In this document: piece by piece, positions 1 to 12,430 of the stretch
How the letters are laid out: every line of letters begins with the position of its first letter
How positions within the stretch are numbered: position 1 is the first letter of the stretch
Assembly (NCBI GenBank): GCA_002786025.1
Contig: NHNW01000138.1
Span: forward strand, 1-12,430
From: Zasmidium citrigriseum
Taxonomy: Eukaryota; Ascomycota; Dothideomycetes; Mycosphaerellales; Mycosphaerellaceae
Length of the DNA stretch: 12,430 nucleotides
Direction of reading: 5' to 3'
Position numbers and translations under genes: made by a program
The notes under the pieces: model-generated
Database searches by the model: none
Seen by the model: the letters and a program-made list of their open reading frames with translations, nothing else
Told to the model about the DNA's origin: nothing

Positions 1-87
1 ACCCTAACCCTAACCCTAACCCTAACCCTAACCCTAACCCTAGCCCTAACCCTAACCCTAACCCTAAACCCTAAACCCTAACCCTAA
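1..87. repeat. Telomere repeat tract (CCCTAA)n, left chromosome end
   Basis: Tandem CCCTAA units with the C-rich strand reading 5' to 3' inward, as expected at a left chromosome end. One unit is CCCTAG (about 37-42), and the inner part (about 61-87) contains CCCTAAA variants with an extra A. The last clear unit ends at 87 and the sequence changes abruptly to RIP-mutated DNA. TTAGGG is the telomere repeat of most filamentous fungi and of vertebrates; the context favours a fungus. Confidence 0.97.
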
Positions 88-88
88 G

Positions 89-184
89 GTCGTCGATAAT
101 AGTAGCTAAAATATAGGGGCTTAAGTCGAGGTTAGTACTTCTAATTCCCTAATATATATTAATAAACTTCTAATATAAAACTAA
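89..184 (+). pseudogene. P0: 3' remnant of an ORF cut by the telomere
   Basis: From 89 a plus-strand frame reads about 30 codons with normal texture (GTC GTC GAT AAT AGT AGC ...) and only two internal TAA/TAG before a stop at 176-178 or 182-184. The stop falls at the edge of the first palindrome (178-207), the same arrangement as at the ends of the other genes in the array. The 5' part is missing because telomere repeat starts immediately upstream. I infer that this is the C-terminal end of a gene lost when the chromosome end was formed. The product is not recognisable; the piece is too short for a firm call. Confidence 0.35.
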
Positions 185-207
185 AACGTTAGCTAATAGT
201 TTAGTTT
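178..207. repeat. Palindromic element 1, at the 3' end of P0
   Basis: Thirty bases running from AAACTAAA to TTTAGTTT around a TAGCTA core, an imperfect palindrome. The first 22 bases recur exactly at 699-720 and 7935-7956. A second perfect inverted repeat, TATACT-ATT-AGTATA, follows at about 206-220. On the minus strand a GTAAGT lies just upstream (about 229-234). Confidence 0.75.
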
Positions 208-301
208 ATACTATTAGTATAATAGAACTTACCTTAAGTACCTTATAGAACTCGTTAAGTAGTTAGCTTACCTATCTCTATAGGAGAGGTAACTAACTAG
301 T
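208..301. other. Spacer between P0 and P1
   Basis: About 90 bases without a reading frame I trust. It holds a short inverted repeat (about 206-220), an ACTTAC motif at 229-234 of the kind seen beside several other palindromes, and the probable upstream region of P1. I see no TATA box that stands out from the general TA richness. Confidence 0.4.
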
Positions 302-700
302 ATAGAAGAGATTTAGGTAGCTAGCGGCCTATAGTACGATATTAGAGGCTCTAGATAGTCTAGTATATATAACCTAAATATAGTACTTCTAGAAGGGAGG
401 TATTAGTAGAGTATAGCCTTAGAATTAGGACTTCTCTTAAGCGATAAGAAGAGAGCGTTACTTCTCGACCTATTAGTCGTAAAGAGTAAAGTTAGGGAAA
501 GTATTAGTAATAATCTTAATATTCTAGTAGTTATTATCTAGTAGCTCTCTAACGGAGGGGTAATAGCGCTTTAGTTAGGTAAGAACTATAGATTAGTTAT
601 TACCTACTATAACTAGAGGAAGATTTAGTTATAGTTAGAGAATAGCGTAAAGTATAGTAGTCTTAAGTATAAGTAATATAATCTCGTCTCGTACTTTTAA
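302..700 (+). pseudogene. P1: degraded ORF, about 132 aa, function unknown
   Basis: A plus-strand frame from a presumed lost ATG (ATA at 302-304) to TAA at 698-700. The start codon is followed by GAA GAG, and the middle (about 420-530) reads a leucine-rich stretch with a Lys-Lys-Arg cluster and few nonsense codons. Roughly one codon in ten is TAA/TAG, read here as mutated Gln or Trp. The stop codon overlaps the next palindrome (699-720), where it converges with P2. The protein would have been small, mostly helical and slightly basic. I do not recognise the family. The start is uncertain because RIP has removed every ATG. Confidence 0.4.
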
Positions 701-720
701 ACTAAAACGTTAGCTAATAG
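699..720. repeat. Palindromic element 2, between convergent P1 and P2
   Basis: Identical over 22 bases to the left part of the elements at 178 and 7935 (AAACTAAAACG then TTAGCTAATAG), but the right arm has decayed to AACTAAG. It supplies the stop codon region of both P1 (plus, 698-700) and P2 (minus, 716-714), so one element serves two converging genes. Confidence 0.75.
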
Positions 721-2168
721 AACTAAGCCGGATTATTAAGTAGCGTTAAGTTAAAGTTTAAAGAAGAGCGAAGACGAGTTTAAATACTACTACGCTAGAA
801 CCGCTATAAAGTAGGCTAGTATTATAACGATAACTATATATAATAGAGTAGCGAACCGCTAGCTAATATTTTATTCTATATCCTTTTCGAGTATAATTAT
901 ATACGTAGTATAAAGTTATTATCTAATAAGTCTTACTAAGGGGTATTACTAACGCCCTATAATACTATAGACCCTCTACGCTATACTATTATTTAATATA
1001 GGAACTCTTACTAATAAGCGTTAAGACTTAGTCGAGACTCTAGTATTATATATCGATTATTACTCTAGTCGAGCTTTTCCTAGCTCGTTACGTAAGGTAC
1101 GAATACGCTCTCCTTATATAATAATTAGTCCTCTCTTATCTAGGTATACTATTCGTAGTATACGTCCTATAGAACGTTAATATTATAGTTAAAATAGGTA
1201 TTAGGTAGGATTTCTTAGTCTACTCTATAGTCTCTTAAGGTAGTAAGAGCGCGAATATAGTAGCGTAACTATCTAATAGTAGAGCTATCTATAGAGAGGT
1301 AGTAATTAAGGATAATTATATAGAGAGTCGCTAGCTATATATTAGCGGTAACGCTAGGCGAAGGGCTTATATCTATATCTTTAAATAACTTATCGACTAA
1401 TCCTATATAAGGTAGGAGATACTACTCTTTAACTATATAAAGGTATAGATAGCCCTAATAATCCTATAGTACCTATATACTAATCTCCGCCTAACTAGTA
1501 GAATATCTATAGCTAAGTAATATAGCCGTAAAAGTAACCTAAACGACTAGTATATATAATTACGCCCTAATATAATACTTTAATAATATAGGAGTATAAG
1601 ACTAGACTATACGTAGTAAAAGCTAGGCCGTCTTAGCGAGTTCGAATATCTACTTTACGCTAAACGACTCGAAACTAAACGTAGTAGTACCTCGTTTAGT
1701 AAAGACGTAGAGTATAGTCTAAAGAGATAAATCTAGCTATCGAATAGCCTCTTCGGCCTAACTACTTACTAAGAATAGAATATCTACTTTAGTAAGCGGT
1801 TAAATATAGATTAGATTAGAACCCTATATATAATTCCTCCCTATATATAACCCCTAGTATACGTCCTATATAGCGAGGCTATATTTATTTTATAAGGGAG
1901 TATTAAGAGTAAAAGTAAGGTCTCCTATAGCGACTTTATAGTATAAGAGCCTAGTAGTATCGATAGGCTTTATAGGCGGTCGATAGTCTATATAGGCTAG
2001 AGGAGGCTATATACGCTAGCGAGTAGCGAGGTATCTAAGATACGCTAGGAGATAGTAGATTAGTAGGATATTTACTACTATTTAATTACCTTCTAGTATT
2101 ACTTCTATCGCGAGTTTAATAGTAATATCGATATTAACGACGATAGTATTAGTAATTAAGTACTCTAT
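714..2168 (-). pseudogene. P2: degraded ORF, about 484 aa, function unknown
   Basis: A minus-strand frame runs unbroken in phase from ATA at 2168 (lost ATG, followed by GAG TAC) to a stop at 716-714 inside the palindrome. Texture is convincing in many places, for example 1861-1980, and in the last 500 bases, where Asp, Glu, Lys and Asn codons alternate with Tyr and Leu. About one codon in ten is TAA/TAG, implying a Gln/Trp-rich protein. Residues about 30-46 are hydrophobic and could be a membrane segment near the N terminus. Tyr, Leu and Gln are prominent throughout. It starts divergently from P3 with about 70 bp between. No domain is recognised, and I saw no catalytic motif. Confidence in the frame is moderate; in the exact start, low. 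Confidence 0.5.
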
Positions 2169-2237
2169 CTACCTATATTATATATAGTCGTTTAATAATA
2201 CTAGAATATATATATATAGCTAGTAATATAGGGGCGT
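2169..2237. promoter_or_regulatory. Compact divergent spacer of P2 and P3
   Basis: Only about 69 bases separate the inferred starts of two diverging ORFs, so this must hold both promoters if the starts are right. It contains a long alternating TA run (about 2206-2218) on which a TATA-binding site could sit, but RIP creates such runs, so this is weak evidence. Confidence 0.25.
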
Positions 2238-2549
2238 ATAGATAGTAAGACAAACTAAACGATTACGCGTAAAATATACTCTAGAGTCTTATACTATAAG
2301 TTAGTCGGAGTAGAGTATTATAGGTACGAAGTTATAGTAATACCTAATAGAACTAAAGTCTTCCGCTATAGAAATAGGTATATACTTATATAATAGTATA
2401 GCCTCTAGAATATTATATTAGAGCTCCGCTAGAAGATAGTAAAATATAGTCGAAGATACTTTGGTTATAGTAGAATAGATATTAGAGACGTAGTATAATA
2501 GTAAGACGATTTAGAGGAAAAGATATTAGAGTATAAAGCGAGGACTTAA
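2238..2549 (+). pseudogene. P3: degraded ORF, about 103 aa, basic
   Basis: Plus-strand frame from ATA at 2238-2240 (then GAT AGT AAG) to TAA at 2547-2549. Nonsense codons are few until about 2390. The product would be basic, with many Arg and Lys, an aromatic Tyr-Phe-Gly-Tyr stretch near residue 75, and an acidic-then-helical C terminus (Asp-Asp-Leu-Glu-Glu near residue 92). Two of the eight surviving CpA/TpG sites lie here: an ACA Thr codon at 2250-2252 and the TTT-GGT junction at 2462-2463. If the TAA at 2547 is really a Gln codon, the frame would extend to 2636 and overlap P4. Family not recognised; a small DNA- or RNA-binding protein would fit the charge, but that is speculation. Confidence 0.45.
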
Positions 2550-2565
2550 AGGAGAAGATACTAGA

Positions 2566-3225
2566 ATATAAGACGAAGATTTTAAGGAGGAAATCTAAGT
2601 AAAGTAGGGTTATATAAGTCGAAACTAGGATTATAATATATAGGGTTTACCCTATAATAAAGTTAGCTCGACTAATAAGGTAATAAACTAGGATAAGGAT
2701 TAGTTTAAATATCTAATTAATTTAAAACTAGGGTTTTTCTAACTATACTATTTTACTACTATTCTAGGGCGGTAGGTAGCCTATAGGTATAAGAGAAATC
2801 GCTAGGGTATCTTACTAAGTCTTATCGCTTTCTCTTATAATAGTAATAAATTATAAAAGTAAGGAAAGTATAACTATATAACTAAGACCTAGCTACTATT
2901 ACTCTACTATATTAAGCTAGGCGGCGGTAGTATCTACTACTATAATAGTACTCTCGATAAGCTACTAGATAATACTTATAACGCTAGTCTACTTAGAAGA
3001 CTACTACTATATAGTATAGAGGTTTATAGTAATACTAGCTTTCTTAAGGTCCTTATAAATATCCTATAGGGAGAGGCTAAAAAGGTTCTAACTAACTTAC
3101 TATATAATAGGAATAGTTATCTTATAGTTACTAAGTATAGATAATATAGTATCGTTTAAGACGGTAGTAGACTACGCTACTATTAACTTCGTTAGTATAT
3201 ATTATAGGAATAAATAGAAAACTAA
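2566..3225 (+). pseudogene. P4: degraded ORF, about 219 aa, function unknown
   Basis: Plus-strand frame from ATA at 2566 (followed by a codon for mutated Gln, then GAC GAA GAT) to TAA at 3223-3225; an in-frame TAA at 3142-3144 is an alternative end. The first 15 residues are strongly acidic, followed by an Asn/Lys-rich part; a basic patch (Tyr-Lys-Arg-Asn-Arg) lies near residue 80 and a Gly-Gly-Gly turn near residue 120. From about 2930 to 3130 only one TAA/TAG occurs in frame, which is the best evidence that this is coding. P4 begins 16 bp after the P3 stop on the same strand, so the two probably formed a pair. It ends facing P5. Family not recognised. Confidence 0.5.
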
Positions 3226-3268
3226 TCTCGAAACTAAACTAAATTATAAGCCTTTAATTCGTTTTAAT
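3226..3268. repeat. Degenerate hairpin between convergent P4 and P5
   Basis: The 43 bases between two converging stop codons contain CGAAACTAAACTAAATT on the left and AATTCGTTTTAATTT on the right, an imperfect inverted repeat with the same AAACTAAA-type arm as the other elements. It is the most decayed member I would include. Confidence 0.45.
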
Positions 3269-3970
3269 TTAGGTAGGGTATACCTTACTATCCTCTAGTA
3301 GAGTACTATTACTATTAATAGGAGTACTATCCTTCTACTTTAGTAGAGTACGGGAGCGCGTAGTAGTCTCTAGGATACTACTAAGAGAGCTAGTCTCGAA
3401 GTTATAGCGACTATAGGGAGTAACGCTACTACGCTATAGAGAGTAACTATAGAAGGACTCTAACTTAGGGGTAGGTTCTTTAGTTAGCTACTACTCGCTA
3501 TCCTCGAAGGCCTTAGGAAAGAGACTATCTTCGTAGGATTTAGGTATCTCCTTCTTAGTAACGATAGTAGTAGGAGCATTATTATAAGTCTCTATTAGCT
3601 TTAAGGTAATAACTAGATAGCTAGACTATATAGTAGCGCTAGTAGAAGTAATATTAGTATTATCGACGCCTACTATATCGACGTTACTATTAGTAGTAAA
3701 GGAAGTACTATTAGTTTTAGGAGTATACTTAGTAGGTATAGTAGTAGATTCCTTAGTACCTTTTATAAGGATATTAACCTAGGTTAGTAGAGGAGCTAGT
3801 AGAAAGAGCTTATCGTTAGTAGGAATATAGTATAAGTAGTATTTCTCGAGGCTAGGAATATACTTAGTCTTATACTTATAGAGCTTAATAGCGCCTATAA
3901 TATATATAGAGAGTTCCTTAACCTATTTCGTAGCCTAGCGAAGAATATCTATAATAAAGTTAGTAAATAT
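3269..3970 (-). pseudogene. P5: degraded ORF, about 233 aa, Ser/Thr/Asn-rich
   Basis: Minus-strand frame from ATA at 3970 (then TTT ACT AAC TTT) to TAA at 3271-3269. Only about 8 of 233 codons are TAA/TAG, one of the lowest rates in the window, so the coding call is strong. The N-terminal third is rich in Lys and Tyr; residues about 70-125 are a Thr/Ser/Asn-rich low-complexity stretch, and the C terminus is Ser/Thr-rich with scattered charges, as in a disordered tail. A surviving CpA at 3577-3578 lies at an AAT-GCT codon junction. It is the last gene of the minus-strand block. Forty-nine bases and a palindrome separate it from P6. Family not recognised. Confidence 0.6.
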
Positions 3971-3984
3971 AAAGGATAAATATT

Positions 3985-4014
3985 AAACTAAAATACTAGC
4001 TAATATTTTAGTTT
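3985..4014. repeat. Palindromic element between P6 and P5
   Basis: Thirty bases, AAACTAAAATACTAG followed by CTAATATTTTAGTTT, palindromic except for one mismatched pair. It begins 6 bp after the P6 stop. On the minus strand GTAAGT (4030-4025) precedes it and TTTTAG closes it. Confidence 0.8.
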
Positions 4015-4019
4015 AATTA

Positions 4020-5045
4020 TTAAGACTTACCTCCTACTTCGATACTATATATACGATACTCGATCTACTCTACTATCTTCTCGGCTATTATAATATAGAT
4101 CTTTACCCTATCTCTCTAGCTAAGTAGAGGTAAATTAGGAAGGTTAATACTATATATATAGCTAGTCTTAGCCTTAACTTTAGGTAGAGTAGAGCTAGAT
4201 TAGTAAGTAAGATACTAGGTAGTAGTCTCGTAGGCGATATCTTTACTATATATAAGATAAAAGAGGGTCTCCTTAGGGATAAGGTTCTTCTTAAAGCTAT
4301 TAGAGTTACTCTAAGTACTACTATAGGTCGAGCGAATTCCGAATATATTATATACTATAGCGTTAAAGAAAAGGCTATAGACGTTCTCCTATATAAGGCT
4401 AAAAGGAGTAGAGCTATCCTTATTACGAGAGGCCTACTCTTCGAATCTCTACTATTTATCTTTAGTATAGTAGTCGAGGGCGTTAGCTATTAACTCTAGG
4501 TTAATAGTAGTCTATCTAGTAATAAGGGTATAATAGCGATCTATATAGATATATTAGAGGATTTAGTTATAAGTCTCGTTAATAGTAAGGTTATAGATAA
4601 TCTACTCCTTAATCTAGCTAACGTAGCTTATATAACCTATAATTTAGATCTTAGTAGTCGCGAAGATAGGATTAGTAATAATCTAGATATAACTACCCTT
4701 CTAGAGATTTATAGACTCTTAAACGGAGACGACTAATAAGAGGATAACCTAGACTTTAGGGTTCTCGTTAAAGTCTAGTTTAGCCTAGACGCGATCGCTA
4801 TTACGCTTACTAGTACGAATAGCGATAGTATTAATCTAGAGGATATTAAGTAAGACCTCGAGCTATATAAGGATAGGTAGCTTAGTAGCCTAGATAGCGA
4901 CCTTCTTACTATATATAATAATATATACTAGAAGAAGATAGTAGATTACGCGAGCCTTTACTAAAGTAGTAGTAAGGTAGATAGCTATAAGTATACGCTC
5001 GGTTAGTATAGAACCTTCGATATTAAACTTAGTATAGTTATATAT
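4020..5045 (-). pseudogene. P6: degraded ORF, about 341 aa, function unknown
   Basis: Minus-strand frame from ATA at 5045 (then TAT AAC TAT ACT AAG) to TAA at 4022-4020. About 23 of 341 codons are TAA/TAG. Residues about 33-46 are a run of Ile, Tyr, Leu and Val after a short charged N terminus and could be a membrane helix. The middle is rich in Gln/Asn and Tyr, and residues about 235-300 alternate Asn/Ser turns with Phe-Tyr-Leu, like a globular protein. The frame stays open upstream as far as the palindrome without an ATA, so the start could lie at another lost codon. It lies between two palindromes in the six-gene minus-strand block. Family not recognised. Confidence 0.55.
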
Positions 5046-5117
5046 CTACTAGAAGATATTAAGCTTAGCTAATACCCTATATAATAAGATTAGTAAAATA
5101 TTTAATCTATAATAACG

Positions 5118-5145
5118 AACTAAAATATTAGCTAATATTTTAGTT
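5118..5145. repeat. Perfect 28-bp palindrome between P7 and P6
   Basis: AACTAAAATATTAG joined directly to its exact reverse complement, with no loop: the best-preserved member of the palindrome family. It starts 11 bp after the P7 stop. On the minus strand a GTAAGT lies at 5159-5154, overlapping that stop. Confidence 0.9.
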
Positions 5146-5155
5146 TACTTATAAC

Positions 5156-6487
5156 TTACTTAGCGTATATAGCCTTTACGTAGAACTCGATATAGTAGAT
5201 AGTAAGAAGGTCTAGGCGAGGGTAAAAGATTATAAGGATCTAGCGACGATACTTAAGGGTACTAGCTATACTATCTTTATCTTTGTCGTTAAGTATAGTA
5301 GCCTTACCTATAGTACGATTAGTAGTCTTAGCGATAATCTTCTCGACTTTATAGTAGAGGCTATACTACTATAGACCTATACGGAGCTTAATAGTCTTAA
5401 AGCGGTAGGCTAGGATCTCTAAACTAAGGATAATCTCCTAGCTAGTAGCCTTTATAATATTACCCTTTACTCGATAAAGGATAGTAAGAAAGTAGATAAG
5501 GGGGAGGAGATTATAGCTAATATTAACGTTATTAGTACGCTCTTCGTTATTATAGATCTTCCGAAAGCTCTCTAGGTTTAGTATCTCTAAGTAACTATAA
5601 CGCTCGGAGTCGGATTTAATAGTAAAGACGTTACTATTATACTTCGTCTTTAAGGCGGCGTAGAGGTTTAAGTAAGCCGCCCGATTATTAACGGATATAT
5701 TAATACTATCTAGCTCCTTAAGATTCTTAAAGATAAAGCGAAGGATACTATAGATATCGTAAATAGACCGCTTCGTAGAAGTCGTAGTAATAAGGACGAT
5801 ACTAGCGATAAGTAGATAAAGATATATACTCTACTTACTAGTAGGCGACTTAACGCGATAGGCCTCGTTAACGAAAAGTATAGCGAAGGAGTTAGCGGGA
5901 ATAGTTAGACGGCATTTAGCGATAATTCTATCTACTACGCGGTCGTCTATAGTAAAGTTAGTAGGCTTATCTTTAATAAAGTCGGCCCTCTCTCTAGAAT
6001 TATTACTATCTCCCTCGTCTTTATTATCGTTAACTAGGGCCTTATACTTTCTACGGGCTTTCTTAAAGGGCTTAGGGGATACGTTAGTACTATCTCTAAT
6101 ATTAGTATCGAGGATCTCCTCTATAATATAATAATATAGGCCCTAGTAGAAAGTAAGGATAAGGGTCTAACTAGTTTAACGATTACTAGTAGGTAGGTCG
6201 TTAAGGAAAGCGATAAGGCCTAAGTCGTTATCGCTAGGGATCTTAAGGCCCTTAAAATACTATCTATCTTTAACGCCGCTAATACTATAGAAAGTCTTAA
6301 GGATAATATTATAGGTAATATCGTTAGTACTAAAGAACTTCGCGTAGTCTCGAGTCTATATAGTAAGAGTAGAGGGCGGGACGTAGATAATAGAGGGCTT
6401 ATAGATAGATATTAGTAGAAGCGTATCGATCTTAGTAGTATATTCGTTAGCTTAAAGATACGGAGGCTTAGTATCTATTATATCTAT
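5156..6487 (-). pseudogene. P7: degraded ORF, about 443 aa, function unknown
   Basis: The clearest reading frame in the window. From ATA at 6487 (then GAT ATA ATA GAT ACT AAG) to TAA at 5158-5156 only about 12 of 443 codons are TAA/TAG, and stretches of over 100 codons have one or none. Residues about 140-185 form a highly charged region (Lys-Lys-Ala-Arg-Arg-Lys, then Asp/Glu/Asn/Ser), probably exposed. A hydrophobic stretch lies near residues 230-245. The rest is rich in Tyr, Ile, Leu, Asn and Lys. A TGC Cys codon survives near residue 192 (TpG complement of the CpA at 5913), and another surviving site at 5284 lies at a GAC-AAA junction. Alternative starts are ATA at 6520 and 6478. I recognise no family; the length and composition would suit a structural or enzymatic protein equally. 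Confidence 0.65.
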
Positions 6488-6520
6488 AGAAAGAATAATT
6501 AGCTAAAGTTTACGAAATAT

Positions 6521-6576
6521 AAACTAAAATAAGGGCTAATAGTTCGTTTATAAACTATTAGTTAATAGTTTAGTTT
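6521..6576. repeat. Double-arm hairpin between P8 and P7
   Basis: Fifty-six bases built from two related half-elements: a left arm AAACTAAAATAAGGGCTAAT and a right arm ending AGTTAATAGTTTAGTTT, inverted with respect to each other. The left arm keeps GGGC at the centre, pointing to an originally G/C-containing core. The P8 stop (6564-6562) lies inside the right arm. Confidence 0.75.
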
Positions 6577-7905
6577 AAAAAACTTATAGAAAAGAACTTT
6601 AGCGAGGCTATTATTACGCTAAGTATTAGAGTCGGGCTTAGCTATTAGCTCGACTACCTCTTTTATCTTAACTAAGAGTTCGTTATACTATTACTAAACT
6701 ACTACTCGGTCTACCTCGATCTAGTTAGTATACGCGATTATAAGTAGAAAGGATTAGACCGTCTTATCGATACCTATATTATTAGCGAGGATATAAGCCT
6801 TAATATTAGACTCTAATATCTTCTTTATCTAAAGGGTTTCTAATAGTTACTATAGTAGGAGGCTAAGACTAGAGAAGGTAATTTAGAAGTTCTACTTAGT
6901 AATAGGGTTAGGTTTAGAAAAGCTAGTTATAATAGTATAACCGAGTTCCTTAATAGCCTCTTCGAACGAAGGAGTAGGAGTACTATATAAATTAAGCGAG
7001 AAATAGAGGGCGAGGAAGCGATCCTAGTAGTTCTCGTCGAATATTATTAGCTCCGTATAGAACTACTCGTTATTTTCTTACGCCGCCTTCGATATTAGGT
7101 TATAGAGCTTAGTATTAATAGCGACGTACTTCTCTATCTACTTCTTAGCGTCGTCGGGGTTAACGATAGCGTCGAAGAAGTTATAGTTCTAGTAGTTAGC
7201 GTTAGAGTAGAGGATCTCGCTACCTTTAAATACTACTTCGAGGATACGTTACTAGGTCTCTATATTAAGTATATCGATATCGTCGCTTAGCGTAGGAGTC
7301 TTACCCTTATTAACGAACTTATTAATAGCCTTCGCTTACTAGAGGGGTTCTAAAGTAGTACCCTTTATTAATTCGATACTAGTCTTACCTATAGTCTCGC
7401 CTTTCGATAAGATACTCTTCTATACCTAGGCTTAATACTTCTCCTATTCTTATATTATAGTATTATTATCCTTAGGGGTAAAGATTAGGAGCTATAGTAA
7501 CTTATCGTATAGACCGCGGCCGCTTCTAGTAGTATATTAGACTTTAGTACGTATAAGTACCTAGAGTATAATACTATAGTAGATATCTTTACTATACTAC
7601 TTTAAGTTATTCTCGAAGAAGACTTTATCGCGCTTATTATCGACTAGACTAGTAAAGATCTTAAGGGTAGGATCGAACGCCTATCTAGTAGCGTTCTAAA
7701 GTATAGTAGCTCGTACGAATTATAAGATATAGAGGTATATATAGGTCGGCTTATTATTAGGAAACCTCTAGCTATTAGGAATACCTATACTAGTAATATC
7801 GTCGCTAGTAATAGTACCGTCCGAAAGGTCGTATAGTAAGGGGCTAGCCTTAAGGCTAAGCTAGTTAGAGGTAATAGTAAGGCTACTATATCTCGACTAG
7901 CTTAT
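6562..7905 (-). pseudogene. P8: degraded ORF, about 447 aa, function unknown
   Basis: Minus-strand frame from ATA at 7905 (then AGC, a mutated Gln codon, TCG AGA TAT) to TAA at 6564-6562; start and stop are in phase. About 38 of 447 codons are TAA/TAG, so Gln was common. The N-terminal 50 residues are Ser/Thr/Asn-rich; the middle carries many Lys, Glu and Asn; the C-terminal 60 residues look like charged helices (Val-Val-Glu-Leu, Lys-Glu). A Gly-Lys-Thr near 7381-7398 resembles a P-loop but the spacing is one short, so I do not call an ATPase. Separated from P9 by a 63-bp hairpin and from P7 by a 56-bp hairpin. Family not recognised. Confidence 0.55.
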
Positions 7906-7934
7906 AGTTAGCTTAATAGTTAGATATTTATTTT

Positions 7935-7997
7935 AAACTAAAACGTTAGCTAATAGTTCGTTCGTACTTACCGAACTACGGGCCGATATTTTAGTTT
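7935..7997. repeat. Large hairpin between P9 and P8
   Basis: Sixty-three bases: left arm 7935-7958 (AAACTAAAACG...TAATAGTT) and right arm 7974-7997 (AACTACGGGCCGATATTTTAGTTT, here only described by its ends AACTACGGG and TTTTAGTTT) in inverted orientation around a 15-base loop. The right arm keeps GGGCC at its centre. The likely P9 stop (8003-8001) is 3 bp outside the right arm. A GTAAGT on the minus strand lies in the loop. Confidence 0.8.
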
Positions 7998-8000
7998 ATT

Positions 8001-8561
8001 TTAATATTTTAAACGTACTACGTAAAGGTTAATTAGAGTATTAACCTTAGTTTAGAGGATATACTAAATCTCTCCTACTTAAAAGAGGTTCTTTAGGTTT
8101 ACGTAGCTAGCCTTATATTCTAGCGGGCTACTACTAAGAGGGTATTAGGCGATATAGATACTATAGCTCTCGAATATTAGGATTAGCTTCTTCTCTAGGC
8201 GCTATTAGGCCTCTATCTACTATCGGTTCTCGATTAACTTTAGTTCCTTAGCCTTATAGGCTTCTAGGACGCTTCTACTAACGCTCTCTCTAGTCTTCGT
8301 AGCCTTTTCTTAAGGTATCTTTATTTACTATAGTCTCTTAGCGGATTTAAACTTATCGTTTACGCTACTACTTATATCCTTACGCTTATTCTTACTAGTA
8401 GAAGTAGGGGCTACGAGTCCCGTTTAGCGTAGGGTACTAAGAAGACTCGTAAGTACTAGGGTTAAGGATAACTAGTCTACTAAAGAGAGCGAGGTAGGCT
8501 ATAGTATCTACTTTCGAGAGGCGCTAAGAGTAGACTCGAAATTCTTATTAGAGTCTATTAT
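8001..8561 (-). pseudogene. P9: degraded ORF, about 186 aa, Lys-rich
   Basis: Minus-strand frame from ATA ATA at 8561/8558 (then GAC TCT AAT AAG AAT TTC GAG) to TAA at 8003-8001; a second in-frame TAA lies at 7970-7968 within the hairpin. About 15 of 186 codons are TAA/TAG. The N-terminal 60 residues are Ser/Thr/Leu-rich, then come Lys/Arg clusters (Lys-Asn-Lys-Arg-Lys near residue 60) and a charged Lys-Ala-Lys-Glu-Leu-Lys-Leu stretch near residue 105 that could form a coiled coil. It lies downstream of P10 with about 150 bp between, the widest gap in the block. Family not recognised; the basic patch could be a nuclear localisation or nucleic-acid-binding segment, which is only a guess. Confidence 0.55.
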
Positions 8562-8692
8562 ACTATCGATATAAGTAGTTAGGTATAAATATAGTTAGGT
8601 AGTAGAAGGCGGTTATTATAGCTATTGGTTAGGGGTAATCGGTATCGATATCGCTTATTAATATAGTATAAAATACTACTAAGTTAAAATTA
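8562..8692 (-). promoter_or_regulatory. Spacer upstream of P9 with a CCAAT-like site
   Basis: About 130 bases upstream of P9. It holds one of the few surviving TpG sites: TATTGGTTAG at 8622-8631, which on the minus strand reads CTAACCAATA, a CCAAT-box-like sequence about 65 bp before the P9 start. CCAAT boxes are bound by the HAP/NF-Y complex in fungi. GGTATCGATATCG at 8641-8653 is a short near-palindrome. Because RIP has edited all CpA, the survival of this motif may be chance or back mutation. Confidence 0.3.
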
Positions 8693-8716
8693 AAACTAAT
8701 TATTAGCTAATAGTTT
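8693..8716. repeat. Palindromic element at the 3' end of P10
   Basis: AAACTAATTATTAG followed by CTAATAGTTT: the TTAGCTAA core is intact, the outer arms have several mismatches. The P10 stop (8717-8715) overlaps its edge, as at P1. Confidence 0.7.
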
Positions 8717-9434
8717 ATAGAGAGGAAGGAGAGGAAGGTAAAGAGGTTATTATAGAGAGAAAGGAAGAGGGTAGTAGAAAGTCTTAAATAGTCTAATACT
8801 TAAGCTACTCGCTAATAATATCGTTATAGCGATACGGCGACGAGCTATTTACTCGCTTATATACTTCTATATAAATAGGATCGCTCTTACGATTTTACTA
8901 GTAGTTCTTATAGAAAGTAATAAAGACTCTCCTAGCGTAGAGTTCTAGAGTAAAGTAAGGTTAGCTAGCTTTATATATATATAGCGCGCTAATAGGGATA
9001 TACGATAAGAGATCCCGGTTACGTAGCTCTTAAATTATAGGCTAATAGTTCGTTTCGTTAAGGATATAGAAAGCTTATCGTAATTTAGCCTATAAGTACG
9101 AGTAGTTTATATAAGGGTTTATAGGGCTTATAATATAGTCTATAATATTAACTAGGATACTACTCCTAAACGAGTATAATCTCTTAACTCTATAGATAAT
9201 AGTCTTTAATATAGTATATAGTTATACCTAGTCGAGCTCTATATTACGGAAGGTAGGCTATAGTTTAGTAGGTATAATTAGGTAGAGGTCGTTCTTATAT
9301 ATAAACTAACTAGGTAAGGTATCTAGATTCGTTAGTATATATACTCTCCTTTTTTAATTTCGTACTAGGTAAGCTCCTATCCCTAGTTTTACTATACTCT
9401 AGGTATAAATATAGGTCGTAGGGAGACTTAATAT
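8715..9434 (-). pseudogene. P10: degraded ORF, about 239 aa, function unknown
   Basis: Minus-strand frame, checked codon by codon, from ATA at 9434 (then TTA AGT CTC CCT ACG) to TAA at 8717-8715. About 16 of 239 codons are TAA/TAG, spread evenly. The protein would be Tyr- and Leu-rich with several Lys/Arg pairs; residues about 150-195 read Phe-Thr-Leu-Glu-Leu-Tyr, Arg-Arg-Val-Phe and Tyr-Lys-Asn-Tyr in quick succession, a texture typical of a folded domain. It heads the six-gene minus-strand block and diverges from P11 with only about 20 bp between inferred starts. A palindrome-like string at 9034-9050 lies inside this frame and is treated as coding. Family not recognised. Confidence 0.55.
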
Positions 9435-9454
9435 ATTAGCGGTAGTAGTACTAT

Positions 9455-10990
9455 ATAATAGTAGTATACCGAGGTATTTCGAGGATACGAAGCTACTCTA
9501 TTATACTACTAGATATATAAGCGAAAGGTACGAGATAGGAGTAGTTATAAGCGTAGAAGGCTAGGGTTAGTAGAGGCTACGTTAAGTAAAAAATATAATA
9601 AGAGGGATATAAGGTAAAGTTAGAGGTCTAGAGTTACTACTAAGGATTCCTATAGACTAGGTAAGAAGGGGATACTACCGCCGTACCCTATATCGTAGCT
9701 ATATAGGGTACGCGATAAGTAGAATATCCTTCCTTATAACGCGAGTAGCGCGTTACTCTACTATTTATCTTTAGTATATAATTAAACTCGGATATAGCTA
9801 CTATAACTATTCCGCTAGATAGCGCTATTATACTAATAGTATCCTAGTTAGAATAGGAGGACCTTATATAACGTAAGGACGTAGATACTTAGCTCTAGGC
9901 TCTAGGCTAGGTAGAAGTCGAGTAAGTACTATAATACTAATACCTCCTATCCGATCTATCTACTATATAGCTAGAGGCTTTATAGAGACTAGTAGCGGAT
10001 AGAATAGAGGCGGATATAGTAAAAGAGCTCTTAGAGTACTACGGCGATAAGACGGAAAGTATAGCTAGGAATATAATACTAGTATAGTAGTATACGTAGC
10101 TATACTATTCCTAGGATATAGATACTAATACTACGCTATAGTCTAAAAGTACCTTCCTCGATAGTCTATATTACCGTAATTTAATTAAGATAAATATAGT
10201 AATAGGGACGTTAGCTAACCTAGACTATAAAGGTAGTTTATATATTATTAAAAAGATATAGGGACTAGACTAGTTTAGCGAGATCCCTAATAATATACGA
10301 CTAGAGCTTCTAGCTATATATATAGCGTCGAAACGAATATTATAGGCTATAGCGAGTATATATAAGCTAGGTATAACTCTATCGGATATAATATATATAT
10401 AGCGAGAAGTATATTAAAGGCGACTAGATTTAGAAAAGTAGCAGAGGGCGGGAAGTAGAACTCCTCGAACGCTAGGCCTACTAGTTATAAACGTAATAGA
10501 TAGTATACTATACTTATATAACTTAGATAGTATAATAGCTAATAGTATATAACTTTTTCTAAGGATTAAAGAGAACTAGCTAGAGTTAAAGGGGATCTAA
10601 GCGACGTAGTAGGAAGTAGGTATAGGTAATAAGAGGAAATAAAAGAGAAATAGCGGTAGTAGTAGTTCTTACTAGGTAAAGAGTAAGAAGGTAAATAATA
10701 CTAGGGATAATAATAATCTAGGTCCGCTATAGAGTAGGTAACTACCTCGGGTCGGTATATACGAGAGTATACGGCTTTTAAGGTATCTTCGCGTAGTATT
10801 TAAGACCCTACGGGACTTTAAGGTAAGACTAAGTATATATAATATCTATAAAGAGGCGGTAGGTAAGATAATAGTATATTTACTAGACGAGGCGCTAGTA
10901 GATAGTCGGGCTACGTTAGAGGTAGTAGATAAGTATATATATAATAGTATTAGTATCGTAGTAACGGATATTAATTTAGGTTTAATATAA
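9455..10990 (+). pseudogene. P11: degraded ORF, about 511 aa, charged helical, Lys/Arg tail
   Basis: Plus-strand frame from ATA at 9455 (a second ATA follows at once) to TAA at 10988-10990, checked in phase along its length. Roughly one codon in eleven is TAA/TAG, implying many Gln. Residues about 110-210 are rich in Gln, Glu, Asp and Leu and look like long helices or a coiled coil. Near residues 390-405 comes a basic cluster (Asn-Lys-Arg-Lys, Gln, Lys-Arg) followed by a run of Ser, which looks like a nuclear-localisation or linker segment; a further Lys/Asn-rich stretch follows. The last 80 residues return to an ordinary globular texture with few nonsense codons. A CAG Gln codon survives at 10442. 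Converges on P12. Family not recognised, and I saw no transposase or polymerase motif. Confidence 0.55.
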
Positions 10991-11223
10991 TATTACTATA
11001 GGAAGCGAAACTAGATATAGTAATACGCTTAATAGTAAACTAGTAAGTAGTAGAGGCGATATAATTTATATAGGGTACTATATACGAAATAATTTACTAT
11101 AATAGTTACCTAGGCTTAATAGACTAAACTATCGGCTAATAATTTAGTTTAATATAAGTTATAGTTTTATATATTATATATAACTAGCTTACTAAGGAAT
11201 ACCTACTATTACTATATAGTCTA
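10991..11223. other. Spacer between convergent P11 and P12
   Basis: About 230 bases with dense TAA/TAG in all frames. The only structure I see is the palindrome at 11121-11150. Either P11 or P12 may run further into it than given: the P12 frame continues to about 11160 with many nonsense codons. Confidence 0.45.
11121..11150. repeat. Palindromic element between convergent P11 and P12
   Basis: AGACTAAACTATCGG followed by CTAATAATTTAGTTT, an imperfect palindrome. The left half keeps CGG at the core where other copies have TTAG, again suggesting an ancestral GGCC-type centre. Confidence 0.7.
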
Positions 11224-11832
11224 TTATATATATTCTAGAAGTAGTTTAGTATTACCTAGCTACTAGTCCTTCCCTACCTACGTCTATTTATCGACGTTAT
11301 CGTCTAGTTCGCGCTCTTAGTCTTTAAGTCGAATCGAGAACTATATTCTCTACGACTATTTATTCTTCTATTTTAGTAACGAACTACTAGGGTATAGTAG
11401 TATCTAGTAGTATTAGACTATTTCGCCGTCTAGAATCCTATTAAAGCGCTTAAAGAGTCTTTTTCTATCTAGGAGTTTATAGAGGCGTTCGTTAATATCG
11501 TCTAGGGTTTTACGAAAAGGTTTATTATCCTAGTACTTACGTTCTAGTCTATCGGGGTCGTAGAGTATCTTAAGTATTATACGGACTAATTTTACGTAGG
11601 GCCTATTCCTAGATATAAGGTATATACTATCTTTTATAATAGTTAAGAGGTACTAGCGTAAGAACCCTTAGGTATATTTTAATACCTCCTTCTAGTAGTT
11701 ATCGAAGATTTCCTCCTTAATACCTACTAGAATATCCCTACAGAGTTCCTCGAGGACTAAGTAGGTAAGCTAGTATAGTAGTTACTTAATCTAATATTAG
11801 TATAGGTCGTCTTTCTTTAGCTACTTTAGTAT
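11224..11832 (-). pseudogene. P12: degraded ORF, about 202 aa, highly charged
   Basis: Minus-strand frame from ATA at 11832 (then CTA AAG, a mutated Gln codon, CTA AAG AAA GAC GAC) to TAA at 11226-11224. Between 11461 and 11640 there is one TAA/TAG in 60 codons, and the frame reads alternating Asp, Glu, Lys, Arg and Leu as in a helical, charged protein. A TGT Cys codon survives at the site 11741. About 20 of 202 codons are TAA/TAG overall, mostly in the C-terminal third. The frame stays open upstream into the purine-rich repeat at 11.87 kb, so the start is uncertain. It faces P11 tail to tail. Family not recognised. Confidence 0.55.
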
Positions 11833-11868
11833 AAGGCTTACTTACTTAGTAATATCGATAGACCTTAC

Positions 11869-12022
11869 TAAGGGAAGGAAAGATTCCCTTCCCTATAAGG
11901 AAGGGAAGTAATATAGTATCCTATAGGAAGGGTAGGAAGGTAGAAAGTAATAGAAATCCCTTCTATCCCTTCCCTTCCTATAGGAAAGGCTAGAAGTATA
12001 GAAAGGCTAGAAAGGCTAGAAG
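11869..12022. repeat. Purine/pyrimidine-rich cluster of short inverted and direct repeats
   Basis: Blocks of AGGGAAGG and its complement CCTTCCCT alternate (for example about 11871-11878 with 11888-11895), TTCCTATAGGAA occurs twice or nearly so (about 11930 and 11976), and the right end has three tandem copies of a GAAAGGCTA-type unit (about 11993-12020). Its G/C-richer, strand-asymmetric composition is unlike the rest of the window. It lies between the 5' end of P12 and the 3' end of P13. It could be a junction, a decayed minisatellite or a regulatory region. Confidence 0.7.
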
Positions 12023-12071
12023 CCGTACTAGTCGCTATACTAGTTAAAGGCTATAGAAACGACGTAAATAG

Positions 12072-12112
12072 AACGATTAATAATCTTAAACGATTAACGA
12101 TCTTAAACGATT
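12072..12112. repeat. 17-bp tandem repeat, about 2.4 copies
   Basis: AACGATTAATAATCTTA (12072-12088) is followed directly by AACGATTAACGATCTTA (12089-12105) and a partial AACGATT. The two full copies differ only by TA versus CG. It directly abuts the P13 stop codon, in the place where other genes of the array have a palindrome. Confidence 0.8.
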
Positions 12113-12429
12113 TAAGTACTACTATTTACTATATATATAAACCTAATAACCTCGCCTTCTACTAATAAAAGGACCTAGTAGCCTAATATAGTAGGGGGTA
12201 GAGTCTTAGAAGGGCGCGTAGCTACTCTAGTACTAGTATCGCTATATAGGTAGTAGTTCTAGGCTAAGTAAGTATAAACCTCTATAAGCTTTACGCCTAA
12301 CTATAGATAAGAGCGAGGAGGGAAAGAAGGGTCGTATCTAAAAGAAGCTCTATAAGTACTATCTTTTTACGCTCTCTTTAGCCTTATCTATCCTTTTTAA
12401 TATACTAACTAAGCTAAATATCTATTATT
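12112..12429 (-). pseudogene. P13: 3' part of a degraded ORF, runs off the window
   Basis: Minus-strand frame entering from the right edge and ending at TAA 12114-12112. From 12360 down to 12115 there are only about three TAA/TAG in 82 codons, including none between 12181 and 12240, so this frame is well supported. The visible 105 residues include a Pro/Ser/Arg-rich stretch (about 12181-12240 and 12310-12350) and a hydrophobic Val-Leu-Leu-Leu-Val near the C terminus. The 5' end is outside the window. A plus-strand frame over the same bases has more nonsense codons and I prefer the minus strand. Family not recognised. Confidence 0.5.
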
Positions 12430-12430
12430 A

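What the first reader, a model, noticed from the sequence alone, without database searches (positions are those of the whole stretch)
302..12430. A gene-dense, apparently intronless array hidden under RIP, of no family I recognise
Seen in the sequence: at least 13 reading frames on both strands, each much poorer in TAA/TAG than the other frames, together cover roughly 85-90 percent of the window. Gaps are mostly 15-150 bp, and six genes in a row share the minus strand (9434 to 3269). Established: filamentous ascomycete genes usually have introns and spacers of several hundred bases or more, and subtelomeres usually hold helicases, transposons and effectors. Inference: the layout resembles a virus-like, plasmid-like or other self-contained element that integrated, multiplied and was destroyed by RIP. 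I found no transposase, reverse transcriptase, polymerase or capsid signature, so its class is open and it may be undescribed.
Basis: partly seen in the sequence, partly recalled or inferred. Interest (0 to 1): 0.87.

Follow-up and report, generated by a model that had tools for sequence, protein, structure and literature searches.

The report
Mutated multi-gene repeat beside a telomere
At a chromosome end of a fungus lies the mutated wreck of a roughly 15,000-letter, several-gene unit that was copied to several places in the genome and then destroyed by the fungus's own defence; its largest gene was a DNA-motor protein of the SNF2 family, and the rest are still unidentified.

Summary
The window is a whole telomeric contig of a 44.4-Mb fungus-like genome, saturated by RIP: 5 CA and 3 TG dinucleotides in 12,430 bp. 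Much of the minus-strand "gene row" (7905-3236) reads as four exons of one gene (1467 codons, 82 stops) encoding an SNF2-family ATPase. Genes C (+) and F (-) and the 3' part of gene G (-) are coding but unidentified. Near copies (C9/C26, C110) differ from the window by 0.03-0.20% transversions, the rest being transitions: recent multiplication, then RIP. An older relative (C10) keeps the same gene order. B, C and G cluster at 8 loci. Three copies, one ancient, stop at the same point after a conserved terminal sequence: probably an element end. Closest precedent: X3X3R8 of Parastagonospora nodorum, a RIP-degraded cluster with SNF2/Rad5-like helicases. No Starship captain or UBC match lies at the element loci. 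Mobility is inferred, its mechanism unknown.

The parts
1..88 (+). telomeric repeat array (CCCTAA)n; the window starts at a chromosome end
   Evidence: TRF period 6, 14.2 copies at 1-87
960..2537 (-). gene F, about 526 codons with 42 in-frame stops; product unidentified
   Evidence: 36% identity to C10:25771-27345; third-position transversions p 1e-7; stops
3236..3948 (-). gene B exon 4 (3' end arbitrary)
   Evidence: phase joins exon 3; no significant periodicity
3949..4030 (-). gene B intron 3, 82 bp, GTAAGT...TTTACTAAC...TTATAG, contains the 30-bp palindrome
   Evidence: donor, branch-like site and acceptor conserved in C10; sequence
4031..5076 (-). gene B exon 3: presumed C-terminal helicase lobe of the SNF2 ATPase
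   Evidence: 43% identity to C10; profile alone found nothing
5077..5159 (-). gene B intron 2, 83 bp, GTAAGT...TACTAAT...ATATAG, contains the palindrome
5160..6483 (-). gene B exon 2: SNF2 N-terminal lobe (motif II read as NEAY, in C10 DEAY; motif III region)
   Evidence: profile A3 hits 10 PDB sequences, all SNF2-family remodelers, E 0.0086-0.53; Pfam SNF2-rel_dom in 2 of 3 rows, best E 0.006, window row not among them
6484..6587 (-). gene B intron 1, 104 bp, ATAAGT...CTATAG, contains two palindromes
   Evidence: phase-consistent; not visibly conserved in C10
6588..7905 (-). gene B exon 1 with a motif-I-like stretch (ANNIGIDKT; C10 ANNTSIGKT); start inferred
8000..8960 (-). gene D, tentative reading frame; overlaps a block (8600-9000) with 67% identity to C10 but no codon periodicity, possibly regulatory
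9602..11017 (+). gene C, about 470 codons with 42 in-frame stops; product unidentified
   Evidence: 47% identity to C10:18833-17421, third-position transversions p 6e-10; stops
11121..11150 (.). one of 12 copies of the element-specific 30-bp palindrome; the others start at 178, 699, 848, 3236, 3985, 5117, 6521, 6547, 7935, 7968 and 8692
   Evidence: 12 matches against a mean of 1.55 (maximum 4) in 20 Markov-model random sequences; genome-wide the pattern with up to 3 mismatches hits only C44, C26, C9 and C110
11150..11858 (-). 3' part of gene G (whole gene about 980 codons at C110:5137-2205); product unidentified
   Evidence: 92% to the C110 protein; p 0.045
11859..12430 (.). dispersed repeat interrupting gene G; the contig ends inside it
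   Evidence: 13 near-full-length copies at 91-98% elsewhere; junction compared with C110 and C9

Best explanation
The window holds a dead copy of a roughly 15-kb multi-gene mobile repeat. Its core is an SNF2-family ATPase gene (B, four exons in the window), a conserved ~980-codon protein of unknown function (G) and a ~470-codon protein of unknown function (C); F belongs at least to this subfamily. Shown: coding ancestry, the SNF2 assignment, near-identical recent copies, an ancient sister copy with conserved order, clustering of the genes at 8 loci, one sharp end shared by three copies, and RIP saturation. Inferred: the unit moved as a discrete element, probably using a DNA-integration protein that is G, C or F, with the SNF2 protein remodelling chromatin or DNA for insertion or for surviving silencing. 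New copies triggered RIP, which exhausted CpA and then struck CpG, breaking the genes. One copy (C26) was probably cut and capped by telomere repeat.
For: RIP saturation. Gene B exon phases and splice sites shared with C10 for introns 2 and 3. SNF2: alignment with C10 bearing the motifs, E 8e-159; PDB profile hits 10 of 10 SNF2; Pfam SNF2-rel_dom best E 0.006; PF00176 alone hits the relative at C147 (E 2.8e-8, 23 TAG and 4 TAA) and, below cut-off, at C13, and the C10 gene-B query hits the same C147 gene (E 3.6e-30) and C13 (E 4.1e-25). Recency: transitions to transversions 591:14, 175:1, 95:2 and 443:8 between near copies, mostly CpG context. Co-clustering of G, B and C. Shared terminus in C110, C9 and C10: 0, 1 and 1 mismatches in the last 26 bp.
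Against: The left end, inverted repeats and target-site duplications were not found. No transposase or integrase was recognised. No homologue of B or G was found in the protein database. A host gene cluster spread by segmental duplication, as Hane and Oliver interpreted X3X3R8, fits much of the same data, and several loci lie near contig ends (C76 about 12-20 kb, C119 2-7 kb). The order of C relative to G differs at C147 and C119. In one search three other SNF2 loci of the genome (L056, L058, L059) gave no significant match to gene B.
Confidence: 0.62

Rival explanations
1. Segmental duplication of an ordinary host gene cluster (SNF2 helicase and neighbours), largely between chromosome ends, then RIP; no mobile element of its own.
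For: The window and C26 end in telomeres. The loci at C119 (2-7 kb from the contig start) and C76 (about 12-20 kb from the end of a 685,067-base contig) are near contig ends. Hane and Oliver 2010 (PMC3017866) call the similar X3X3R8 repeat an endogenous gene cluster. A gene-C-like stretch sits at a little-mutated chromosomal place, C1:1295804-1296385.
Against: An ancient sister (C10) and two recent copies stop at the same point with a conserved terminal sequence. The gene set recurs at 8 loci of differing age, and lone gene B remnants lie inside longer contigs (C13:283 kb of 968,599 bases). Every G and B match listed carries in-frame stops, though an unmutated copy would be harder to see with a RIP-mutated query.
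Confidence: 0.31
2. Endogenised DNA virus or virus-like element such as a Polinton/Maverick.
For: Multi-gene, about 15 kb, genes on both strands; large DNA viruses can carry SNF2-like helicases (recalled).
Against: Spliceosomal introns in B and probably G. No polymerase, capsid, packaging or integrase signal in Pfam or PDB searches of the read-through genes, though RIP weakens such searches.
Confidence: 0.03
3. Starship giant transposon relic with this set as cargo.
For: Multi-gene mobile units in filamentous ascomycetes are often Starships (recalled).
Against: DUF3435 captain matches occur only on C70 (three rows of a mutated copy, so the search can see damaged captains) and, below cut-off, C116; 0 of 4 on element contigs. 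The unit is about 15 kb.
Confidence: 0.04

Closest known systems
X3X3R8 repeat family of Parastagonospora (Stagonospora) nodorum (Hane and Oliver 2010, PMC3017866)
   Same: RIP-degraded, multi-copy, multi-gene repeat with Rad5/SNF2-like helicase genes and uncharacterised ORFs
   Different: X3X3R8 has three helicase genes and a Rad6-like ubiquitin-conjugating gene and keeps some apparently functional copies; here one SNF2 gene per unit, no UBC match at element loci and all B, G and C copies seen in the window's subfamily carry stops. Direct homology could not be tested: no P. nodorum sequence on hand
Telomere-linked RecQ helicase repeats (for example X26 of P. nodorum, PMC3017866)
   Same: RIP-degraded helicase gene next to telomeres
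   Different: SNF2 family, not RecQ; several companion genes
Starship transposons
   Same: multi-gene mobile units in ascomycetes (recalled)
   Different: no DUF3435 captain match at the element loci; much smaller
Introner-like elements and internally symmetrical introns (PMC8469720, start of abstract in the search listing only)
   Same: introns sharing a symmetric repeated sequence
   Different: here the palindrome also occurs in spacers and, at up to 3 mismatches, only on this element's contigs

Membership tests
SNF2-family ATPase (gene B) | recognisable SNF2 N-terminal domain | tested here: met
   PDB profile hits 10 of 10 SNF2 remodelers, best E 0.0086; Pfam SNF2-rel_dom in 2 of 3 rows, best E 0.006; chain through C147 and C13. 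The window row alone matched only DUF6818, E 0.16, below its cut-off
SNF2-family ATPase (gene B) | helicase C-terminal lobe with motifs IV-VI | tested here: inconclusive
   the conserved window-to-C10 stretch reads like motifs IV-VI by eye (motif names recalled), but profile A4 gave 0 PDB and 0 Pfam matches
X3X3R8-type RIP-degraded SNF2 gene cluster | SNF2/Rad5-like helicase plus uncharacterised ORFs, multi-copy, RIP-degraded | tested here: met
   against the description in PMC3017866
X3X3R8-type RIP-degraded SNF2 gene cluster | Rad6-like ubiquitin-conjugating gene | tested here: not met
   PF00179: 0 of 37 matches at an element locus; a RIP-destroyed one could be missed
X3X3R8-type RIP-degraded SNF2 gene cluster | sequence homology to X3 and R8 | not testable with these tools
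   no P. nodorum sequence in reach
Starship | DUF3435 tyrosine-recombinase captain | tested here: not met
   0 of 4 matches on element contigs; the left end is missing from most copies
DNA transposon with terminal inverted repeats | TIRs and target-site duplication | tested here: inconclusive
   right end found; no inverted partner in the fetched loci scanned; left end missing from most copies
RIP target | CpA/TpG depletion with TpA gain, overwhelmingly transition differences between near copies | tested here: met

The most novel reading that the evidence does not exclude
An undescribed class of autonomous eukaryotic DNA element: about 15 kb, with its own SNF2 motor and an unrecognised integration protein (G, C or F), and an element-specific palindrome in its introns and spacers. 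It has persisted long enough to form anciently diverged subfamilies in one genome and was active until shortly before RIP killed its newest copies.
Probability: 0.28. Interest if true: 0.78.

Novelty: new variant of a known kind. Interest (0 to 1): 0.52.

Why it matters
It shows that saturating RIP hides whole multi-gene repeats that profile searches miss, and that counting open frames under RIP misleads. If the unit is mobile, SNF2-type genes scattered in fungal repeats may be element genes rather than duplicated host repair genes, which would change how X3X3R8-like repeats are read. The shared end gives a direct test by strain polymorphism.

Tried and rejected
Pfam scans of single read-through genes gave nothing: 0 of 7 (its protein 1 was in a wrong frame) and 0 of 6; also 0 for three unspliced frames of about 3269-9434. 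RIP lowers scores below HMMER's filters. PDB: none; A4 none; A7 none; A5 and A6 only weak, unrelated matches (E 1.4-1.8, YmdB and uL4; E 0.19-0.3, terpene synthase), treated as chance. Rfam: none. The protein database: 3 of 3 searches without a match; one search used only one exon, so its length filter would have excluded full-length relatives. AlphaFold of gene C from the window alone: mean pLDDT 36.9, discarded, no fold search made. Long hairpin score: window 3 against 0-2 in 8 random sequences, so hairpin stability is not the signal; the repeated sequence is. The 21-bp tandem array at C10:27477-27659 looks somewhat like the terminal motif, in the same direction, but the match is not significant. 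The C1 frame resembling gene C gave only a sub-threshold Pfam match (DUF7701, E 0.1). Literature: 8 of 10 searches used; only PMC3017866 (outline, passages, section 6) and PMC10799480 (passages) were opened. "Not in print" is not claimed.
Full report
SETTING. The window is the whole contig C44 of genome G000 (44.4 Mb, 148 contigs). It begins with telomeric repeats (1-87). It has 5 CA and 3 TG dinucleotides, TA at 1.83 times expectation, and GC about 0.30-0.38. That is RIP driven to exhaustion of its preferred CpA site; three gene-bearing loci of the same genome have GC 0.52-0.55 and a CA+TG to AC+GT ratio of 1.30-1.43 (L056, L058, L059). No name of the organism was available.

IS THE CODING SIGNAL REAL? 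That test is weak under RIP: of eight intervals, against Markov-model random sequences only gene B exon 2 clearly stands out (11 stops in 440 codons, 0 of 300 as low; exons 3 and 4 reach 0.07), and in genes C and G the assigned frame is not the poorest. I therefore used a frame-blind nucleotide alignment with the diverged copy on contig C10 and asked where transversions fall, which RIP does not make. Gene C (p 6e-10), gene F (p 1e-7), B exon 2 (p 2e-4) and the G part (p 0.045) show third-position excess in the frame assigned; B exons 1 and 3 and the tentative D point the same way without significance; B exon 4 does not. The eight non-coding or unassigned intervals tested are all flat. The assigned coding parts cover 67% of 302-12430, not 85-90%.

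ONE SPLICED GENE. Reading that strand from 7905, three gaps begin with GTAAGT or ATAAGT and end in TAG, with branch-like CTAAC or CTAAT, and leaving them out keeps one frame through four exons: 7905-6588, 6483-5160, 5076-4031, 3948-3236, 1467 codons with 82 stops. For intron 3 the donor, the branch-like site and the acceptor are conserved in C10 while the middle differs; intron 2 is similar but looser; intron 1 is not recognisably conserved. In C10 the whole gene aligns in one frame with extra residues at these places, so its introns, if present, do not shift the frame. The start and 3' end are inferred. Gene G too has a probable intron in the relatives at C87, C76 and C113: its match is split by about 63-84 bp near codons 255-263.

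WHAT GENE B IS. The gene B protein aligns with the C10 copy over 1271 residues at 33% identity, E 8e-159. By eye (motif names recalled) the pair shows SNF2 motifs: ANNTSIGKT/ANNIGIDKT (I), DEAY/NEAY (II), then a motif III region. Independent support: the exon-2 profile of window, C26 and C10 rows hits ten PDB sequences, all SNF2-family remodelers (SMARCA, ISW1/ISWI, CHD1L), E 0.0086-0.53. Pfam SNF2-rel_dom matches 2 of the 3 rows, best E 0.006; the window row itself matched only DUF6818 at E 0.16, below its cut-off. Without any use of the window, PF00176 finds a partly RIP-mutated gene at C147:27406-28725 (E 2.8e-8), and the C10 gene B query finds the same gene (C147:25828-27612, E 3.6e-30) and C13:283510-284595 (E 4.1e-25), which adjoins a sub-threshold PF00176 match. 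Direct blastp of gene B (window; C10) with the C147 gene gives E 8.5e-8 and 1.7e-12 when RIP is applied to the C147 gene by script, and 1.1e-7 and 4.9e-8 as it stands; the three other SNF2 loci tried (L056, L058, L059) gave nothing significant. The C-terminal lobe profile alone found nothing.

COPIES AND THEIR AGE. C26:1-7172 (91%), C110:1-2910 (94%) and C9:31101-32695 (94%) match the window; C10 is a diverged colinear relative. The ends printed show that the last ~118 bases of C9 equal the first of C26, so these two contigs are probably one locus (by eye). Differences between near copies are 591 transitions to 14 transversions in 7142 columns (window-C26, 1 gap column), 175:1 in 2910 (window-C110, 0 gaps), 95:2 in 1595 (window-C9, 0 gaps) and 443:8 in 6082 (C110-C9, 21 gap columns), mostly C-to-T at CpG. 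So the copies were nearly identical when RIP began. Against C10, 18-27% of aligned sites in genes C, B exon 2 and F are transversions, so two lineages of the same multi-gene unit had long been separate, with protein-level constraint, before RIP.

THE GENE SET TRAVELS TOGETHER. Own-genome searches with read-through proteins gave 15 rows for G on 10 contigs, 15 rows for B on 8 contigs and 10 rows for C on 8 contigs (the tool scores only the best candidates). Two or more of B, C and G lie within about 12 kb at 8 loci: C44 (window), C9/C26 counted as one, C110, C10, C147, C119, C87 and C76. Rows that do not cluster: C53 (G fragment), C113 (two G), C13 and C80 (B), a second B on C87 at 385 kb, a second C on C110 at 15.9 kb, and two C-like rows on C1. 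C147 and C119 have C on the other side of G, so order is conserved within, not between, subfamilies. F was found only in the window and C10.

AN END. C110, C9 and C10 align up to one point (C110:7401, C9:26593, C10:12263) and then are unrelated. The last stretch, TATCTAACCTCGAACCTAAATTCGGGTAGTAGA, is far better conserved than the body: C9 and C10 each have 1 mismatch to C110 in the last 26. This is what an element terminus looks like. The window lacks it because a dispersed repeat interrupts gene G at 11858. The other end is lost at telomeres or uncertain; no inverted partner was found in the fetched sequence scanned. On C26 the element is fused at about window 3240 to CCTAACCCTAACCCTAA, suggesting a broken copy healed by telomere addition.

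PALINDROME. A 30-bp palindrome family occurs 12 times in the window (89-11858) against 1.55 expected (maximum 4 of 20 random sequences), 7 times in the C10 element against 0.8 (maximum 2), 6 times in the C26 part against 0.8 (maximum 3) and 3 times each in C110 (0.70, maximum 2) and C9 (0.95, maximum 3, so not exceeded there); outside the element it is not enriched (C26 rest 0, C110 beyond 7400 0, C10:1-12200 1 against 1.30). In the window the copies sit in all three gene B introns and in spacers or unassigned stretches; one overlaps the arbitrary end of exon 4 and one the tentative gene D. With up to 3 mismatches the genome search listed 12 such places (21 strand rows), all on C44, C26, C9 and C110; the reversed control pattern gave 0. 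Function unknown; spread by an introner-like process is possible.

WHAT IT IS. The nearest published thing I found is X3X3R8 of P. nodorum: repeats degraded by RIP, described as an endogenous gene cluster with tandem Rad5/SNF2-like helicases, a Rad6-like ubiquitin-conjugating gene and uncharacterised ORFs (PMC3017866; passages and section 6 read). The present unit resembles that, with one SNF2 gene, no UBC match at its loci (0 of 37), ancient subfamilies and a shared end. The end and the recurring gene set make a mobile element more likely than host segmental duplication, but no transposase is recognised and mobility is inferred. Starship is disfavoured (0 of 4 captain matches on element contigs). 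A TE screen across fungi names helicase-bearing DNA transposons (AcademH, KolobokH, Helitron) as common helicase sources (PMC10799480, passages read); I could not test kinship.

LIMITS. The copies of the window's subfamily that I read are RIP-saturated, so residue-level claims are blurred. Gene D and the stretches 90-950 and 2540-3235 are unresolved.

Noticed in passing
11859-12430: Dispersed repeat (about 572 bp in the window): 13 near-full-length copies elsewhere at 91-98% and 7 partial ones at 85-87%; 5 of the 13 lie within 9 kb of a contig start. It interrupts gene G.
   Followed up: partly
L037/C26 near 7140-7172: Interstitial telomere repeat (CCTAACCCTAACCCTAA) where the element stops, with 12 kb of less RIP-mutated sequence and a telomere beyond it: a likely healed chromosome break that later gained a new end.
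   Followed up: partly
L061-L062 (C1:1295804-1298498): A little-mutated place whose first stretch resembles gene C (30% over 125 residues) and runs into an 826-codon open frame. By eye its end looks JmjC-like (recalled), but PF02373 did not report C1.
   Followed up: partly
8600-9000: Block with 67% identity to C10, more than any of the assigned coding intervals, yet without codon periodicity; perhaps a regulatory region next to gene C.
   Followed up: partly
C10:27477-27659 (L036:7477-7659): Array of about nine 21-bp tandem repeats just beyond gene F, a candidate for the other element end.
   Followed up: partly
C70:484061-485419: A RIP-mutated DUF3435 (Starship captain-like) gene in the same genome, about 6 kb from a copy of the dispersed repeat (C70:491306).
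   Followed up: no
C60:8001-9057, C65:56305-57361, C134:71600-72656: Three places with identical scores and frame lengths for SNF2 domains without stops; recent duplicates that escaped RIP or assembly duplicates.
   Followed up: no
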